NCBI GenBank assembly: GCA_021777035.1
Contig: JAIQZR010000147.1
Location: forward strand, 1-64,000
Reading direction: 5' to 3'
Source: Candidatus Scalindua sp.
GTDB lineage: Bacteria; Planctomycetota; Brocadiia; Brocadiales; Scalinduaceae
DNA length: 64,000 nt
In this document: piece by piece, positions 53,804-64,000 of the stretch
Layout of the letters: each line of letters opens with the position of its first letter
Numbering within the stretch: position 1 is the first letter of the stretch
Notes under the pieces: generated by a model
The model's database searches: none
What the model was told of the DNA's origin: nothing
The model's input: the letters and a program-made list of their open reading frames with translations, nothing else
Translations under genes and position numbers: made by a program

Positions 53804-54811
53804 TTATTTACCAATATCGTGCAGCCTGTCCAGTGGGCTTTGAAGTCCGTCAATTTCGCGTTGCATTACATGGGTATAAATCTCGGTTGTTTTGACGTCG
53901 GCATGGCCCAACAACGTTTGTAAGACCCGGATATTGACGCCGTTTTCCAGCATATGGGTGGCGAAACTGTGGCGTAAAGTATGGCAGCCCGCGCGCTTCA
54001 AAATCCCTGCTCGATCAACGGCGCTCTTGACTGCCTTTTGAAGGCCGGATTCCATAACATGATGCCGCATTTTACGGCCTGATCTTGGATCAACGGATCT
54101 TTTTTTCGCGGGAAAGAGATATTGCCAGCGGGTCTCACCTTCTGCGTTTGGATACTTACGGGCTAAAGCTTCCGGCAAGTAAACTTTTCCGAAACCCTCA
54201 TCACAGTCTCGGTGATGAAGGTTGATTACGTATTTTATATGTGTTTGAAGCTCTTCGCGGATGTTCCCGGGCAGTATAGTTGTTCTGTCTTTGCCGCCTT
54301 TGCCCCCGCGAACAAAAATTTTATTTTGACCAAAATCAACGTCCTGGATGCGCAGTCTTATACATTCCATAAGACGCAGGCCTGAACCGTACAGTAATTT
54401 TGACATCAATGCGTGCGTCCCGCCCATCATCAGGAGTAGGCGTTGAACCTCTTCTTGAGTGAGTACCGTTGGTGGCCTTTGTTTCTTTTTAGAGCGAATA
54501 GGTGAGATTTTGCCGTCAAGAGGTAGATCAAGTACTTCACGGTAGAGAAAGACGATGGCATTCAATGCCTGACTCTGAGTAGAAGCGGAAACCTTTCCTT
54601 GTGTTGCCAGGTCAGATAAAAACCTCTCAACGTGTTTAGAGCATAGATTTTTTGGATGGATCCTGCTTCCGAAAAAACGTACATAACGCAATATCCACTG
54701 GCAATATGAAGTTTCAGTGCGGTAAGCGTAATGATGATAACGTAAAACCTCCCGTACCTGATCCATCAACTTTAAAGAAGGATTGGGGCGAAACCTGGGC
54801 TTATTTTCCAT
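53804..54811 (-). CDS. intI: Integron integrase (tyrosine recombinase)
   Basis: The ATG at 54811 is chosen over TTG 54832, which overlaps the -10 box of the promoter; the product is 335 residues. It has an N-terminal SAM-like domain (HHYAYRTETSYCQWI) and catalytic domain with RHRY residues: R in SGLRLMECIRLRI, HTLRHSFATHMLE, H in LLGHADVKTT and Y in IYTHV. The additional segment between (LFPAKKRSVDPRSGRKMRHHVMES) is the IntI-specific patch that separates integron integrases from XerC/D. It excises and inserts cassettes at the adjacent attI. Confidence 0.95.
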   Translation of the reverse strand: MENKPRFRPNPSLKLMDQVREVLRYHHYAYRTETSYCQWILRYVRFFGSRIHPKNLCSKHVERFLSDLATQGKVSASTQSQALNAIVFLYREVLDLPLDGKISPIRSKKKQRPPTVLTQEEVQRLLLMMGGTHALMSKLLYGSGLRLMECIRLRIQDVDFGQNKIFVRGGKGGKDRTTILPGNIREELQTHIKYVINLHHRDCDEGFGKVYLPEALARKYPNAEGETRWQYLFPAKKRSVDPRSGRKMRHHVMESGLQKAVKSAVDRAGILKRAGCHTLRHSFATHMLENGVNIRVLQTLLGHADVKTTEIYTHVMQREIDGLQSPLDRLHDIGK

Positions 54812-54820
54812 GTTTTGGGC

Positions 54821-54849
54821 AAGATATCGCAATAAGTGGAAAATGTCAA
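54821..54849 (-). promoter_or_regulatory. Predicted intI promoter
   Basis: On the minus strand TTGACA (54849-54844), a 17-base spacer and TATCTT (54826-54821) lie nine bases before the chosen ATG, so the transcript would begin only a few bases upstream of it or be leaderless. The 14-bp box at 54831-54844 fills most of the spacer. Confidence 0.6.
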
Positions 54850-55642: not shown

Positions 55643-56227
55643 ATGAGTTCACTATATGTAAGCAATCCTTTCTTACAACAACCTCGACACCAGATATTCG
55701 TGAGCTATCACCACTCAGCTTATGATCAACCTTATCGAAACCACTTTGAGAATCTCTTTGCGAATATCCATGATATAATAGTATCAAAATCGGTTCAAAT
55801 TGGCGAGATAGCCCCAAACATTCAAACAGAAACCATACGACAGAAAATAAGGGATGAATACTTGAGAGACTCAACGGTTACGGTAGTGCTCATCGGTGCT
55901 GAAACATGGAAGCGGAAGCATGTTGACTGGGAAATAGGGTCAAGCATTCGGCAAACCCAAAATAACCCAAGGTCTGGTTTGCTCGGAATTATTCTTCCCT
56001 CTTATCCCCGTAATGACCAGTCGAAGTACAACCCATACACGATACCGCCACGTTTGTATGACAATATCCAATGTGGGTTTGCAAAAATATATAACTGGAG
56101 CAATAATAACCCAGCATCCGTGCAAAAGTGGATTCACGAAGCATTTGAACGACGCAACAAAGTTACCCCAGACAACTCTTTTCCAAACTTTGTGAATAAC
56201 CGGACTGGCGAAAGGTGGCAGAAATGA
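55643..56227 (+). CDS. Cassette 2a: TIR-like domain protein (ThsB/DUF1863-like)
   Basis: This 194-residue protein starts with ATG preceded by GGAGG. It contains QIFVSYHHSAYD, then IRQKIRDEYLRDSTVTVVLIGAETWKRKHVDWEI; residues 18-130 match the MTH538 TIR-like domain found in Thoeris ThsB and related NAD-derived-signal producers, with the candidate catalytic Glu E97 in DWEI. The gene overlaps the next one by ATGA, so both are translated together. TIR proteins in bacteria act in anti-phage signalling or NAD depletion; function here is inferred. Confidence 0.8.
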   Translation: MSSLYVSNPFLQQPRHQIFVSYHHSAYDQPYRNHFENLFANIHDIIVSKSVQIGEIAPNIQTETIRQKIRDEYLRDSTVTVVLIGAETWKRKHVDWEIGSSIRQTQNNPRSGLLGIILPSYPRNDQSKYNPYTIPPRLYDNIQCGFAKIYNWSNNNPASVQKWIHEAFERRNKVTPDNSFPNFVNNRTGERWQK

Positions 56228-56697
56228 AATGGCGGAAATGGTTAGAAAATTGGGATATGACTTCGTTGAAAATCAACGCTTCTTTCCTGGAGATGGAATG
56301 GAAACCACAAGATGAAGACAAGGCTGCTGCGTGGGAGTTGTATATAGAACTGCTTACACGTATTACAACTCAACCACTTGACCCCGAGCATGGTGACGAA
56401 AAAACAGCACTTGATAGTGTTTATTCTTTGTTTTTAATCACTCGACAAGTACTAAAGAACAATACACGGAACTGCACGGAGTTCACAAAGATTGCAATTG
56501 TGGTATTGAATCAAGTCATCCGCCCGTTTACAGCGAAGTGGCATCGTCTCTGCTTACAGGATATTTTTAAGAAACCGGAGAAATGTGTCGAGTTTAGGAA
56601 GGAATTAGAAACACTACAGACGACTCTACGGAAATATACGAAGATGCTGGCTGATATGGCAGGGGTTGAAGATTTGACAATTTTAGAAGAAACCTAA
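56224..56697 (+). CDS. Cassette 2b: helical partner of the TIR-like protein
   Basis: The ATG at 56224 gives an ATGA overlap with the TIR gene stop (157 residues); GTG at 56215 is a weaker alternative. The sequence is alpha-helical with Trp-rich N-terminus (KWRKWLENW) and ends VEDLTILEET; no known domain is recognised. It lies in the same cassette and has no ThsA hallmark (no SIR2 or SLOG domain), so if this pair is a defence system it differs from canonical Thoeris. Could be a binding or inhibitory partner or an effector. Confidence 0.7.
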   Translation: MKWRKWLENWDMTSLKINASFLEMEWKPQDEDKAAAWELYIELLTRITTQPLDPEHGDEKTALDSVYSLFLITRQVLKNNTRNCTEFTKIAIVVLNQVIRPFTAKWHRLCLQDIFKKPEKCVEFRKELETLQTTLRKYTKMLADMAGVEDLTILEET

Positions 56698-56820
56698 CAA
56701 ATCAGTGGAGCCAACCCCTCCGCCATTTGCGATTCGATTATTTTCAGGCTCTTTGTTTATCTTATTTTTTTATCTATTATTTTATTTGCCAAACGGGGTT
56801 GCTCACCTCAGACGTTAGAA
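56692..56820 (+). other. attC site 2 (type A)
   Basis: R'' ACCTAAC at 56692-56698 and R' GTTAGAA at 56814-56820. The 129-bp body is nearly identical to attC 5 and 6 (AGCCAACCCCTC at the start, GGGGTTGCTCACCTC near the end, complementary). Confidence 0.85.
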
Positions 56821-58813: not shown

Positions 58814-58938
58814 GCCTAACAAAACAGTGGAGCCAACCCCTCTGTCATTTGCGATTCGATTATTTTTAGTCTCTTTGTTTATCTTATTTTTGTCTATTAT
58901 TTTATTGCCATACGGGGTTGCTCACCTCGACGTTAGGC
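58814..58938 (+). other. attC site 5 (type A)
   Basis: R'' GCCTAAC (58814-58820) and R' GTTAGGC (58932-58938) bound a 125-bp body that is nearly identical to attC 2 and 6. Confidence 0.88.
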
Positions 58939-59545: not shown

Positions 59546-59672
59546 ACCTAACAAATCAGTAGAGCCAACCCCTCTGCCATTTGCGATTCAATTATTTCCA
59601 GGCTCCTTGTTTATTTTATTTTTATCTATTATTTTATTTGCCAAACGGGGTTGCTCACCTCAGGCGTTATGT
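59546..59672 (+). other. attC site 6 (type A)
   Basis: R'' ACCTAAC (59546-59552), R' GTTATGT (59666-59672), the latter off consensus at one position. Same body as attC 2 and 5. Confidence 0.82.
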
Positions 59673-59696: not shown

Positions 59697-60725
59697 ATGA
59701 AATGCATTTACTGTCTTGAAGACAAACCAAATAATTTCTTTGTGAAAACAGAACATGTCTTGCCACAATCATTTGGTAAATTTAAAAATAATCTCACACT
59801 TAATAAAGTAGTTTGTGACGAATGCAATGAATATTTTGGAAATAATCTGGAAATTTCATTAGGTCGTGATACTCTTGAAGGAATGTCAAGATTTGAGCAT
59901 AAAGTAAAAAATAAACATGAATTTAAATCATCAGGTAAAAAAAACAGAATAAATATCAAAGTAGACGAAGGTCCTTTTAAAGGTGCTTATGCCTATCGAG
60001 AATATTCGGACTTGGAAGACAAGATAATAATCAAGCCAATTCCCCAAGTGGGTTTCAAAAAAGTTGACGCTCATAACTATGAGTATTTTCCTTTAGATAA
60101 GATTCCTGACAAACAATATTTAGAAAAGCATTTCTCACTTAATACACCAAAGCCGATTACGGTACTTGGTTGTACTGCTGCTGATGCACAAAAACATTTA
60201 TCTGAAAAGAACATTTCGTTATCATCAAACCCAGATGGTGAATTCTCACTTTCCGAGAAACCTTCTGATTGGGGCTGTGTAGTAACAGCAAGAATTGACC
60301 AAATTATATTCCGGTCAATTGCCAAGATTGCTTTCAATTATCTCACGTATTGGGCCGAACGAGATATTGGACAGGGATTTGTTTTTGATAGTTCATTTAA
60401 TCCTATAAGGAGATATATCCGTTTTGGTGAAAAAATATCTTTTCCATTTGTTGTGATTATTGAAAAAGCAATAATGTATGATGAACCCATAGTAGGAAAA
60501 AGAAAACTGGGGCACCTTATTACTCTTGATCAATCCAAAAACAAGTTGTCAATTGTTTCGGATGTGTCTTTGTTTAATTTTAATACATATTCAGTTCTAC
60601 TTGCCAAAGATAATAAATGGAAAAGTTTTAGTCTCCGAAAAGGGAATTTTTTTAATATTGCTAACAAAGAAGTTTTAGAATTAATACCTAGAGATATGAT
60701 TAGCGGTCAGGAAATAATCAATTAA
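59697..60725 (+). CDS. Cassette 7: HNH endonuclease
   Basis: This 342-residue protein has an N-terminal HNH motif: C3-x2-C6, EH(20)VLPQS, then VVCDECN with the second CxxC at 40 and 43 and catalytic or structural N44. About 280 further residues have no recognisable domain. HNH proteins in accessory cassettes often serve in restriction or phage defence. The start ATG lies 25 bases after the previous attC, without a good ribosome-binding site. Confidence 0.8.
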   Translation: MKCIYCLEDKPNNFFVKTEHVLPQSFGKFKNNLTLNKVVCDECNEYFGNNLEISLGRDTLEGMSRFEHKVKNKHEFKSSGKKNRINIKVDEGPFKGAYAYREYSDLEDKIIIKPIPQVGFKKVDAHNYEYFPLDKIPDKQYLEKHFSLNTPKPITVLGCTAADAQKHLSEKNISLSSNPDGEFSLSEKPSDWGCVVTARIDQIIFRSIAKIAFNYLTYWAERDIGQGFVFDSSFNPIRRYIRFGEKISFPFVVIIEKAIMYDEPIVGKRKLGHLITLDQSKNKLSIVSDVSLFNFNTYSVLLAKDNKWKSFSLRKGNFFNIANKEVLELIPRDMISGQEIIN

Positions 60726-60740
60726 TAATTAGAATGCAAA

Positions 60741-60800
60741 AGATAACAACGCTTCACATAATCGCAAAAAGACATGAGATATGTGAGTGAAACGTTAGGT
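60741..60800 (+). other. attC site 7 (short type)
   Basis: AGATAAC (60741-60747) and GTTAGGT (60794-60800) bound a 60-bp site whose arms AACGCTTCACAT and ATGTGAGTGAAACGTT pair. It lacks the long variable terminal loop of the other sites. Confidence 0.7.
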
Positions 60801-61294: not shown

Positions 61295-61419
61295 ACATAA
61301 CAAGCGCATGAAGCCAACCACCAACAACTATGCGATTAAATATTTATTGAGGCTGCCGCTCTAAGCCTTTCTTGTTAGCATTACGTATAGGTGGTGGTTG
61401 CTTATGCGAGACGTTATAA
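61295..61419 (+). other. attC site 8 (type C)
   Basis: R'' ACATAAC (61295-61301), R' GTTATAA (61413-61419, off consensus). Arms AAGCGCATGAAGCCAACCACC and GTGGTTGCTTATGCG are complementary with mismatches; body distinct from types A and B. Confidence 0.75.
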
Positions 61420-61446
61420 ATATTTAAAAAGGATCTTGGAGTTAGA

Positions 61447-61668
61447 ATGATTAGAATATTGTCCTATGGGGAAAATTATCATCTACTAAGATCAAATGAT
61501 AATCTTTTTCATTATACAAACACTAAAACTGCATTCGAACATATATTACCGACCAAATCATTACGATTTAACTATTTGAACCAAACAAACGACCCCTTGG
61601 AATATAAATCATGTTGGTTGACACCGCTTATGCCAAAAAATCCAAATGCTGCTGGGGTCAAACCTTGA
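61447..61668 (+). pseudogene. Cassette 9: truncated DUF2971 gene
   Basis: The 73-residue product has the N-terminal DUF2971 signature (LFHYTNTKTAFEHIL, then LRFNYLNQTNDPLEY). Full DUF2971 proteins are several times longer. The frame runs into the pre-attC block and stops within GGGGTCAAACCTTGA, so the C-terminal part was lost in a rearrangement at that block. Members of DUF2971 are common in defence islands but their role is unclear. Confidence 0.75.
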
Positions 61669-61745: not shown

Positions 61746-61871
61746 ACCTAACCAGTCACTGGAGGTGACGCCTTTATCTCTTGCGTTTTTTGAGTTTTTA
61801 GATTCTTTGCTTATTTTATTTTTTCCCATTATTCTATACGCCATACGGCGCACCTCACCTCAGCGTTCGAC
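61746..61871 (+). other. attC site 9 (type B)
   Basis: R'' ACCTAAC (61746-61752), R' GTTCGAC (61865-61871, off consensus). Body nearly the same as attC 3. Confidence 0.8.
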
Positions 61872-61880
61872 AGATAAGAA

Positions 61881-64000
61881 ATGAATACGACGCCGGACAA
61901 ACCTGAGAATGTCGATCCTCGGCTCTGCCCGCAATGTGGCCAGACGTTGGTCAATGTGGGCACGTTCTGGGTATGTCCGTCTCATGGCCAGGTCCCGGAA
62001 CCAAAGCTATTCACGGCCCTACGCATCTTCCTGAGCTACGGCCACGACGCCAACGAGGAATTGGTCCGCCGTATCAAGGCCGACTTGGAGGAGCGTGGCC
62101 ATGATGTCTGGTTCGACAAGACGGACATCAAGGCAGGCGACGATTGGCGGCGTGCGATCACGGATGGAATTCTACGCAGCCAGCGTGTCGTCTCTTTCCT
62201 CTCGAAGCACTCCACTCGAGATCCCGGTGTCTGCCGAGACGAGATAGCCATAGCCATCGGCGTGAAGGGCGGGAACATCCAGACCATCCTGGTAGAGAGC
62301 GAAACGGAAGTGCAGCCACCCGTGAACATCGGGCATATCCAGTGGCTCGACATGCACGATTGGAAAGAACTGCGTGCGGCAGGCGAAGCTATTTGGGAAC
62401 ACTGGTATCAAACCAAGCTCGCCGAGATTGTACGAGTCGTTGAGAGCGACGAGAGTCGCCGTTTCGCCGGTGAGATCGAAACCCTCCACGGTCATCTCAA
62501 GCCCATCAAATCCGACGCCCGCATCTACGACCTGCTCCGGAAGGGTTTCTTTGGTCGCACTTGGTTGTTCAAGGCTGTGGAGAAATGGCGGCATGATTCG
62601 AAGCGAGATTCCCGCCTGTTTTGGATCACTGGCGATCCCGGCGTAGGGAAGAGTGCCTTTGCCGCCCAACTCGCCCACACCCGCGCCGACGCCGTCATCG
62701 CCGCCCAGTTCGTCGAATGGGACAAGCCGGACCACCGCGACGCTCGGCGCGTCGTCCGCAGCCTAGCCTTCCAACTTGCCACGCGCCTGCCCGACTACCG
62801 CAAGCTCGTGCTCGCCCTGCCGGAGATTGCCGAACTCGACCGCAAAGACCCGGCCGAACTCTTCGACTACCTACTGGCCAACCCGCTCCGCTCCGTCATC
62901 GGCGGCGGACGTGAGCGCCAACTCATAGTCATTGACGCGCTCGACGAAGCAGGCGAGGCCGGGCACAACCCACTCGTGGAAATGCTCGCCCGCCACGCCA
63001 CGCGCCTCCCTGAGTGGCTTGGCCTGCTGATTACCAGCCGTCCAGATGAAGAGGTCCAAACGCCACTCCAGGGACTTTCCGGGTTGAAACCGCTGATTCT
63101 AAATACAGGTCACGTAGAAAACCTTGCCGATATCCGTGACTATCTTCGCCATCAGTTGCCCGATGCTGCTGATGCCGCCGTTAATGTAATAGTAACAAAA
63201 AGCGACGGAGTCTTTCTCTACGCCGAATATGTCTGTGAGGAACTGAGGCACAACCGGCTATCACTGGCACGGTTGGATGAGTTTCCGCATGGTCTGGGTG
63301 GCATTTATGCCCAGTACTTTGCCCGCCAATTCCCAAATTTGGATTCTTATAAGAATACCACCCGCTATGCGCTCGGCTTGCTCGTCGCCGCCAGGGAATC
63401 GCTTGAGCCAGGTTTTCTGGCCAAATTCATGGAATGGAACGATTACCAACTAAATGACTTTCTTAATTCGCTTGGCAGTTTGATCAAACAAACCGATGGG
63501 AAACTGCATCCATTCCACAAATCCCTTTTTGATTGGGTTACTGAGAAAAGGATGGCCGGATCGTTTTATGTGAGTAAACTTGAAGGGCATCGAATGCTTG
63601 CAAAAAAAGAATGGGAGGAATACCAACAAGATCCTGAAAATATGACTGCATACACATCCAATAATATCGCATATCATTTAGCTGGCAGTGAGTGGTGGGA
63701 TAAACTTCAAGAAATATTGCTGGATGAAAGATTGCCATTCCTACCAGCATGGCGAGAAATAAACTGTCTCCCGAATGGATGGGATTTTTCTCCATTTTTA
63801 AACAGAGCTTTAAGTATTGTGAAGGCAGTTCAAGATCGTCGTCGTTCTGGAACCCCTGACGATTATGAAGACCTCTATAGCCTTTTTCATGCTTTGAGTC
63901 AAAGTGCCTCTTCGCGAACGGCCTCACTATTTTTCGAAACAATAGCGGCTGATCGATATATCCCAGGTGTATTTAGATCAAGTTTTTCTGATGTGTATGC
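61881..64000 (+). CDS. Cassette 10: TIR-NACHT/STAND protein (3' end outside the window)
   Basis: The frame is open from ATG 61881 to the window end (706 codons and more). In order: a zinc ribbon (CPQC at 16-19, CPSH near 32), a TIR domain (about 47-170; FLSYGHDANEE, candidate catalytic E121 in CRDEIA), a NACHT/AAA ATPase with Walker A GDPGVGKS at 251-258 and Walker B LIVIDALDEA near 347-357, then helical repeats to the edge. Such proteins are bacterial NLR-like sensors in which ligand recognition by the C-terminal part triggers TIR NADase activity. GC is about 60-68% over the first 1.2 kb and falls to under 45% after about 63100. Confidence 0.85.
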   Translation, partial: MNTTPDKPENVDPRLCPQCGQTLVNVGTFWVCPSHGQVPEPKLFTALRIFLSYGHDANEELVRRIKADLEERGHDVWFDKTDIKAGDDWRRAITDGILRSQRVVSFLSKHSTRDPGVCRDEIAIAIGVKGGNIQTILVESETEVQPPVNIGHIQWLDMHDWKELRAAGEAIWEHWYQTKLAEIVRVVESDESRRFAGEIETLHGHLKPIKSDARIYDLLRKGFFGRTWLFKAVEKWRHDSKRDSRLFWITGDPGVGKSAFAAQLAHTRADAVIAAQFVEWDKPDHRDARRVVRSLAFQLATRLPDYRKLVLALPEIAELDRKDPAELFDYLLANPLRSVIGGGRERQLIVIDALDEAGEAGHNPLVEMLARHATRLPEWLGLLITSRPDEEVQTPLQGLSGLKPLILNTGHVENLADIRDYLRHQLPDAADAAVNVIVTKSDGVFLYAEYVCEELRHNRLSLARLDEFPHGLGGIYAQYFARQFPNLDSYKNTTRYALGLLVAARESLEPGFLAKFMEWNDYQLNDFLNSLGSLIKQTDGKLHPFHKSLFDWVTEKRMAGSFYVSKLEGHRMLAKKEWEEYQQDPENMTAYTSNNIAYHLAGSEWWDKLQEILLDERLPFLPAWREINCLPNGWDFSPFLNRALSIVKAVQDRRRSGTPDDYEDLYSLFHALSQSASSRTASLFFETIAADRYIPGVFRSSFSDVY

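What the first reader, a model, noticed from the sequence alone, without database searches (positions are those of the whole stretch)
61881..64000. TIR-NACHT/STAND sensor carried as an integron cassette, with a GC break inside the gene
A large NLR-like protein (zinc ribbon, TIR, NACHT, repeats) starts ten bases after an attC. Large genes are rare in cassettes. The first 1.2 kb is about 60-68% GC in sampled lines and the remainder about 38-45%, inside one uninterrupted frame. That suggests that a foreign TIR-NACHT core was joined to a local sensor domain.
Basis: partly seen in the sequence, partly recalled or inferred. Interest (0 to 1): 0.7.

Follow-up and report, generated by a model that had tools for sequence, protein, structure and literature searches.

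The report
Mosaic TIR-NACHT receptor in integron cassette
A bacterial NLR-like immune receptor gene sits in an integron cassette and was spliced together from two different relatives inside its ATPase domain, which shows a probable anti-phage receptor being both mobile and re-assembled; phage defence itself was not tested.

Summary
Confirmed and sharpened. The gene runs from 61881 to 64376, past the window end, and encodes 831 aa: zinc ribbon, TIR, NACHT with probable winged helix, and an unclassified C-terminus. It lies in a genuine 2,738-bp cassette (61866-64603). Its own 72-nt GC-rich attC folds classically; the cassette start, GTTCGAC, is the exact complement of that attC's GTCGAAC; the neighbouring cassette is joined to two different attC sites at the GTT crossover. 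The GC break is real: third-position GC falls from 0.73 to 0.50 at codon 386, then to 0.31 near 561. An independent relatedness break falls at aa 378 (373-383). Before it the protein is about 90% identical to a Hydrogenedentota homologue and 83-84% to Verrucomicrobiota and Acidobacteriota homologues; after it under 60%, falling to about 37%. Separate trees conflict (AU p 0.004-0.012); six close relatives lack a break there. A local origin of the C-terminal half is not shown. Most likely function: abortive-infection TIR NADase receptor (inferred). TIR-NACHT receptors and integron-borne defence are each known; this mosaic in a cassette is a new variant.

The parts
53804..54832 (-). intI, integron integrase, apparently intact (342 aa)
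   Evidence: TIGR02249 443.8 bits, full length 1-315/315; over cut-off in 26 of 62 genomes of the order, two full copies in this genome
61746..61871 (+). attC of the preceding cassette; its last 6 bases (TTCGAC, 61866-61871) are the start of the TIR-NACHT cassette
   Evidence: sequence and attC scan
61866..64000 (+). TIR-NACHT cassette; continues beyond the window to contig position 64603, 2,738 bp in all. Its own attC (72 nt, GC-rich) is at contig 64538-64609, outside the window
   Evidence: bounded by G/TT crossover points; GTTCGAC (61865-61871) is the exact complement of its attC R'' GTCGAAC (contig 64538-64544); attC fold z=-3.15, attC unique in the genome; same following cassette found joined to another attC at the same point
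61881..64000 (+). TIR-NACHT gene, 831 aa; continues beyond the window to the stop at contig position 64376
61926..61982 (+). N-terminal zinc ribbon (aa 16-34, CxxC ... CxxH)
   Evidence: sequence; C16 and C19 conserved in the three family members of A1, C16 nearly invariant in 18
62025..62366 (+). TIR domain (aa 49-162); putative catalytic Glu121 at 62241-62243
   Evidence: PF13676 E=8.3e-24; E121 invariant in 18 relatives; nearest solved relatives AbTIR-type TIR proteins
62562..63056 (+). NACHT/NPHP3_N NTPase (aa 228-392); Walker A GDPGVGKS 62631-62654, Walker B LIVIDALDEA 62922-62951
   Evidence: PF24883 E=1.5e-23, PF05729 1.4e-7
63012..63044 (+). mosaic junction: relatedness break aa 378, GC3 break codon 386, conserved ITSRP codons 63030-63044
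   Evidence: LLR 42 and 52; DNA identity to L041 82-93% per 20 codons before, 40-65% after; controls
63402..63692 (+). probable winged-helix region (aa 508-604)
   Evidence: HTH_TANC1 E=1.2e-4, below curated cut-off; helices in model
63729..64000 (+). C-terminal presumed sensor (aa 617-831; continues beyond the window to contig 64373), mostly helical in a low-confidence model, no recognised family
   Evidence: no Pfam hit over cut-off; models unreliable here
61414..61660 (+). cassette X (truncated ORF), first copy; second copy at contig 64604-64839 follows the TIR-NACHT attC
   Evidence: exactly two copies in the genome, 99% identical

Best explanation
A gene cassette of a resident integron carries an NLR-like receptor that is a recombinant between two members of one TIR-NACHT family. 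Its first ~380 codons (zinc ribbon, TIR effector, P-loop and Walker B) come from a GC-rich lineage now found in Hydrogenedentota, Verrucomicrobiota and Acidobacteriota. The rest (end of NTPase, winged helix, sensor) comes from a distant, lower-GC member. The join lies in the conserved sensor-1 strand (ITSRP), probably by recombination at a conserved motif, and keeps the frame and all NTPase motifs. The cassette with its own GC-rich attC was then captured by the integron. Inferred mechanism: the C-terminal part senses an invader product, the NACHT exchanges nucleotide and oligomerises, and clustered TIR domains cleave NAD+, stopping the infected cell. Cassette and mosaic status are shown by sequence; the order of events, sensing, oligomerisation, NAD+ cleavage and phage defence are inferred.
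For: Cassette: attC on both sides, exact R''/R' complement, same cassette X joined at the GTT point to two attC sites; full-length IntI at the array head. Mosaic: aa 47-400 are 90% identical to L041 and 83-84% to five others; aa 491-616 only 33-38%, while those six keep 55-66% among themselves there, and stay about 90% identical to aa ~530. Change-points at aa 378 (373-383) and codon 386 (379-406) agree. The same relatedness test on the six clade members gives LLR 1.6-6.8 against 44 here. N tree: sister of L041, SH-aLRT 99; C segment rejects that grouping, AU p=0.012, and grouping with the seven-member clade, p=0.004. N minus M GC difference 0.18; largest among 41 relatives 0.09. Function: TIR and NACHT motifs intact, E121 invariant; best fold matches are a plant TIR-NLR, then Avs3; C-termini of near relatives are swapped wholesale: WD40, TPR, DUF4062+STAND, NB-ARC.
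Against: No close relative of the C-terminal half (aa 387-831) was found, so its donor is unknown and a very fast-evolving original C-half cannot be wholly excluded, although the abruptness and the GC step argue against it. Metagenome-style assembly of limited quality (204 contigs, 5.5% contamination); reads were not available. The gene lies about 7 kb from intI, so it may be silent. Defence-like neighbours in the array are only a ThsB-like TIR and an HNH cassette.
Confidence: 0.8

Rival explanations
1. Metagenome misassembly: two unrelated genes were joined by the assembler.
For: The genome is a 204-contig draft with 5.5% contamination; the gene is near a contig end in a region with a 235-bp duplicated cassette.
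Against: The join is in frame, at the homologous residue, and keeps every NTPase motif; the two parental types share only a few identical bases there, less than usual assembly k-mers (assembler not known). The duplicated segment lies outside the gene. The attC/cassette-start complementarity links the high-GC start with the attC placed after the low-GC end.
Confidence: 0.07
2. One inherited gene with domain-specific base composition and a fast-evolving C-terminal half; no recombination.
For: Several relatives show milder third-position-GC drops in the same direction, and all diverge beyond aa ~560.
Against: Their drops are mostly at codons ~530-612, not 386; among six close relatives aa 481-530 are 91-92% identical on average whereas this protein is 36-44% there; AU tests reject the shared history.
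Confidence: 0.08
3. Not a defence receptor but a STAND regulator or housekeeping signalling protein that rides in a cassette.
For: STAND ATPases include regulators; MalT is among the best fold matches. No activity was tested.
Against: N-terminal TIR with conserved Glu, best Foldseek matches a TIR-NLR and Avs3, swapped sensors, spread over many phyla, integron cassette context known for defence genes (PMC12409362).
Confidence: 0.15
4. The cassette is a decayed, non-functional capture.
For: C-terminus is shorter than in most relatives and has no recognised repeats; no promoter stood out and it is far from intI.
Against: Uninterrupted 831-codon frame with all catalytic motifs and an intact attC; close relative L041 is also short (769-aa frame).
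Confidence: 0.15

Closest known systems
Bacterial TIR-NACHT / TIR-NLR receptors (bNACHT proteins of Kibby et al.; TIR-NLR of Rousset et al. 2022; both as cited in PMC10952713)
   Same: N-terminal TIR effector, central NACHT NTPase, C-terminal sensor; predicted abortive infection by NAD+ loss
   Different: Zinc ribbon before the TIR; recombined inside the NACHT; sits in an integron cassette; assignment to a specific bNACHT clade or TIR-NLR system not tested
Integron-borne antiphage cassettes (Darracq 2025, Getz 2025, Kieffer 2025, as cited in PMC12409362)
   Same: Probable defence gene between attC sites in an array with intI
   Different: A 2.7-kb cassette with a multi-domain NLR-like receptor and a foreign-looking GC-rich attC; I found no held paper that reports a TIR-NACHT cassette, but the key papers are not in the library
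Avs (AVAST) STAND receptors, e.g. Avs3 (8dgc) and Avs5 (PMC12931631)
   Same: Tripartite STAND plan with variable C-terminal sensors; Avs3 among top fold matches
   Different: Effector is TIR (Avs5 has Sir2, PMC12931631); PADLOC gave only weak TIR-region hits for this protein
Paralogue in the same genome (C194, P0002) TIR-NACHT-TPR
   Same: Zinc ribbon, TIR, NACHT, 39% identity over aa 15-615
   Different: TPR sensor, uniform ~44% GC, no junction; not the donor of the C-half (43% there)

Membership tests
Integron gene cassette | attC at the 3' end with R''/R' and L''/L' pairing and extrahelical bases | tested here: met
   contig 64538-64609; DNA fold z=-3.15 with 7 R pairs, L stem and bulged bases
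Integron gene cassette | Cassette start matches its own attC R' across the crossover | tested here: met
   GTTCGAC (61865) versus GTCGAAC (64538), 7/7 complementary
Integron gene cassette | Integron integrase at array head, further attC sites | tested here: met
   TIGR02249 443.8 bits; seven attC in 56692-64609
Integron gene cassette | Mobilised by IntI | not testable with these tools
   Indirect only: cassette X joined to two attC sites at the GTT point
TIR-NACHT (bNACHT-type) NLR-like receptor | TIR domain with conserved glutamate | tested here: met
   PF13676 8.3e-24; E121 invariant in 18; that it is the catalytic residue is inferred
TIR-NACHT (bNACHT-type) NLR-like receptor | NACHT NTPase over curated cut-off with Walker A and B | tested here: met
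   PF05729 31.9 bits against cut-off 26.7; PF24883 84.3 against 24.8
TIR-NACHT (bNACHT-type) NLR-like receptor | C-terminal repeat sensor | tested here: inconclusive
   No repeat family over cut-off; low-confidence model, mostly helical
TIR-NACHT (bNACHT-type) NLR-like receptor | Protects against phage through NAD+ depletion | not testable with these tools
   none
Avs (AVAST) systems | Match to Avs profiles | tested here: inconclusive
   No Avs profile at E<=1e-3 for P0001; paralogue P0002 matches Avs1b at 2.5e-6 in the NTPase only
Thoeris | ThsB TIR with a ThsA partner | not tested
   A ThsB-like protein is in another cassette (55643-56227); no search for ThsA was made

The most novel reading that the evidence does not exclude
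Intragenic recombination at the sensor-1/TSRP motif is a recurrent way in which this TIR-NACHT family exchanges effector halves for sensing halves, and integrons move the recombinants between phyla, a combinatorial receptor repertoire. Hints: two other relatives (L055, break near aa 360, LLR 29.6; L050, near aa 317, LLR 19.6) also lose relatedness inside the NACHT.
Probability: 0.15. Interest if true: 0.75.

Novelty: new variant of a known kind. Interest (0 to 1): 0.55.

Why it matters
It is a recent-looking example (90% identity on one side, about 37% on the other) of an NLR-like receptor remade by recombination inside its ATPase, and it shows that a large multi-domain receptor can travel as an integron cassette. 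If functional, it extends integron defence libraries beyond the Vibrio, Xanthomonas and mobile-integron cases cited here, and offers a natural domain-swap to test which part of an NLR sets specificity.

Tried and rejected
attC sites beside the close relatives: none credible (10 hits in 92 kb against 8.2 in shuffles), so the family is not generally cassette-borne; only the unrelated TIR protein of L097 is. Viral contigs: no relative. Plasmids: four distant hits only. Structure of the C-terminus alone: pLDDT 40, unusable. 'Large genes are rare in cassettes' is weakened by a TAL effector reported among Xanthomonas cassette genes (PMC12444791). VIA-align rows for the whole model are dominated by AAA+/STAND NTPases and say little beyond that. 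Host name was not established.

Full report
Setting. The window is bases 1-64000 of contig C54 (65,078 nt) of a 4.16-Mb, 204-contig genome. The frame starting at 61881 ends at 64376 and encodes 831 aa. Coordinates above 64000 in this report are contig coordinates that continue the window's.

The cassette. An integron integrase, full length against TIGR02249 (443.8 bits), lies at 53804-54832 on the minus strand, and an array of cassettes follows on the plus strand. A search for RYYYAAC...GTTRRRY pairs with complementary inner boxes gives sites at 56692-56820, 58814-58938, 59546-59672, 60741-60800, 61295-61419, 61746-61871 and 64538-64609. The last of these follows the TIR-NACHT gene by 162 nt. 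It is 72 nt long and GC-rich, unlike the 125-129-nt AT-rich sites that dominate the array, and occurs nowhere else in the genome. Three facts show that it belongs to this cassette. First, with the cassette's own first bases put back, it folds into the standard attC hairpin (z=-3.15). Second, the cassette's first bases (GTTCGAC at 61865) are the exact complement of the attC's R'' (GTCGAAC at 64538), including a position where both depart from consensus. Third, the next cassette (X) exists in two copies, 99% identical, one behind the attC at 61295-61419 and one behind this attC, both joined at the GTT crossover. The cassette is 61866-64603, 2,738 bp. Integrases over the curated cut-off occur in 26 of 62 genomes of the order, so the platform is ordinary for the host group.

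The protein. Pfam finds TIR_2 (8e-24), NPHP3_N (1.5e-23) and NACHT (1.4e-7), with a weak winged-helix match. The zinc ribbon is seen in the sequence and shared with relatives. The C-terminal ~215 residues match no family over its cut-off, and their structure could not be predicted with confidence. The model's best Foldseek matches are the plant TIR-NLR RPP1 and the phage sensor Avs3. E121 of the TIR is invariant in 18 relatives, and the nearest solved sequences are AbTIR-type proteins.

Composition. Third-position GC is 0.73 up to codon 386, 0.50 for codons 387-561 and 0.31 after; genes of the host chromosome in the window average 0.38. The single break at 386 (379-406) has an LLR of 51.9, never reached in 500 shuffles.

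Relatives. One scan of 84,980 species genomes gave 58 loci. The closest are in Hydrogenedentota, Verrucomicrobiota and Acidobacteriota. Over aa 47-400 this protein is 90% identical to the Hydrogenedentota gene L041 and 83-84% to five others. Over aa 491-616 it is 33-38% identical to all of them, no better than to its own paralogue (39%). Those six stay 91-92% identical to each other on average over aa 481-530, where this protein is 36-44% identical to them. Against columns invariant in the six, agreement drops from 98% to 63% at aa 378 (373-383; LLR 42). The same test on the six members themselves gives LLR 1.6-6.8. DNA identity to L041 is 82-93% per 20 codons through codon 386 and 40-65% after it. 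The N-terminal tree pairs this protein with L041 (SH-aLRT 99); the segment aa 390-560 rejects that pairing (AU p=0.012) and rejects grouping with the seven-member clade (p=0.004). The breaks in composition and in history thus agree within a few codons, at ATT ACC AGC CGT CCA (ITSRP), the sensor-1 strand of the NTPase (strand 380-386 in the model).

Reading. The gene is a mosaic of two members of one family, joined inside the NACHT. Near relatives with 73-92% identical cores carry wholly different C-termini: WD40, TPR, DUF4062 plus a second STAND module, or NB-ARC. Their boundary lies near aa 530-616, where several also show a milder third-position-GC drop and where this gene has a weaker second step (561, gain 8 log units).

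Known context. Bacterial NACHT proteins with TIR effectors and C-terminal sensors are described as tri-modular anti-phage proteins (PMC10952713), and integrons as stores of defence genes (PMC12409362). I found no held paper on a TIR-NACHT cassette, but the main integron-defence papers are not in the library, so absence is weak evidence. Function in phage defence, NAD+ cleavage and mobility by IntI are inferences.

Noticed in passing
L097:1-1700 (Bacteroidia MAG JAUIFC010000244.1): A DUF4062+TIR protein (177-1439) sits between two attC sites (26-161, 1503-1638): a second NADase-type probable defence gene as a cassette in another phylum; DUF4062 was recently described as a TIR-like NADase (PMC13174449).
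   Followed up: partly
window 55643-56227: A ThsB-like TIR protein (PF08937, E=1.3e-18) lies in the first part of the same array, about 0.8 kb from intI, with an unknown ORF overlapping its end (56215-56697).
   Followed up: partly
window 59697-60725: HNH_5 endonuclease-like gene in its own cassette, GC 32%; a possible further defence or nuclease cassette.
   Followed up: no
window 61414-61660 and contig 64604-64839: Truncated cassette X in two copies flanking the receptor cassette; the second is followed by a Y1/IS200-like transposase that runs to the contig end.
   Followed up: partly
L043:7777-9777: A TIR-NACHT protein from a Verrucomicrobia MAG (68% identical over the core) carries DUF4062 and a second STAND NTPase at its C-terminus: two NADase-type domains and two STAND-type modules in one 1,280-aa frame.
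   Followed up: no
L055 and L050: Two other relatives also lose relatedness to the clade inside the NACHT (aa ~360 and ~317; LLR 29.6 and 19.6): possible further mosaics.
   Followed up: partly
G000:C194:17086-19770 (L002): TIR-NACHT-TPR paralogue in the same genome, uniform GC, 39% identical; not the donor of the C-half.
   Followed up: yes
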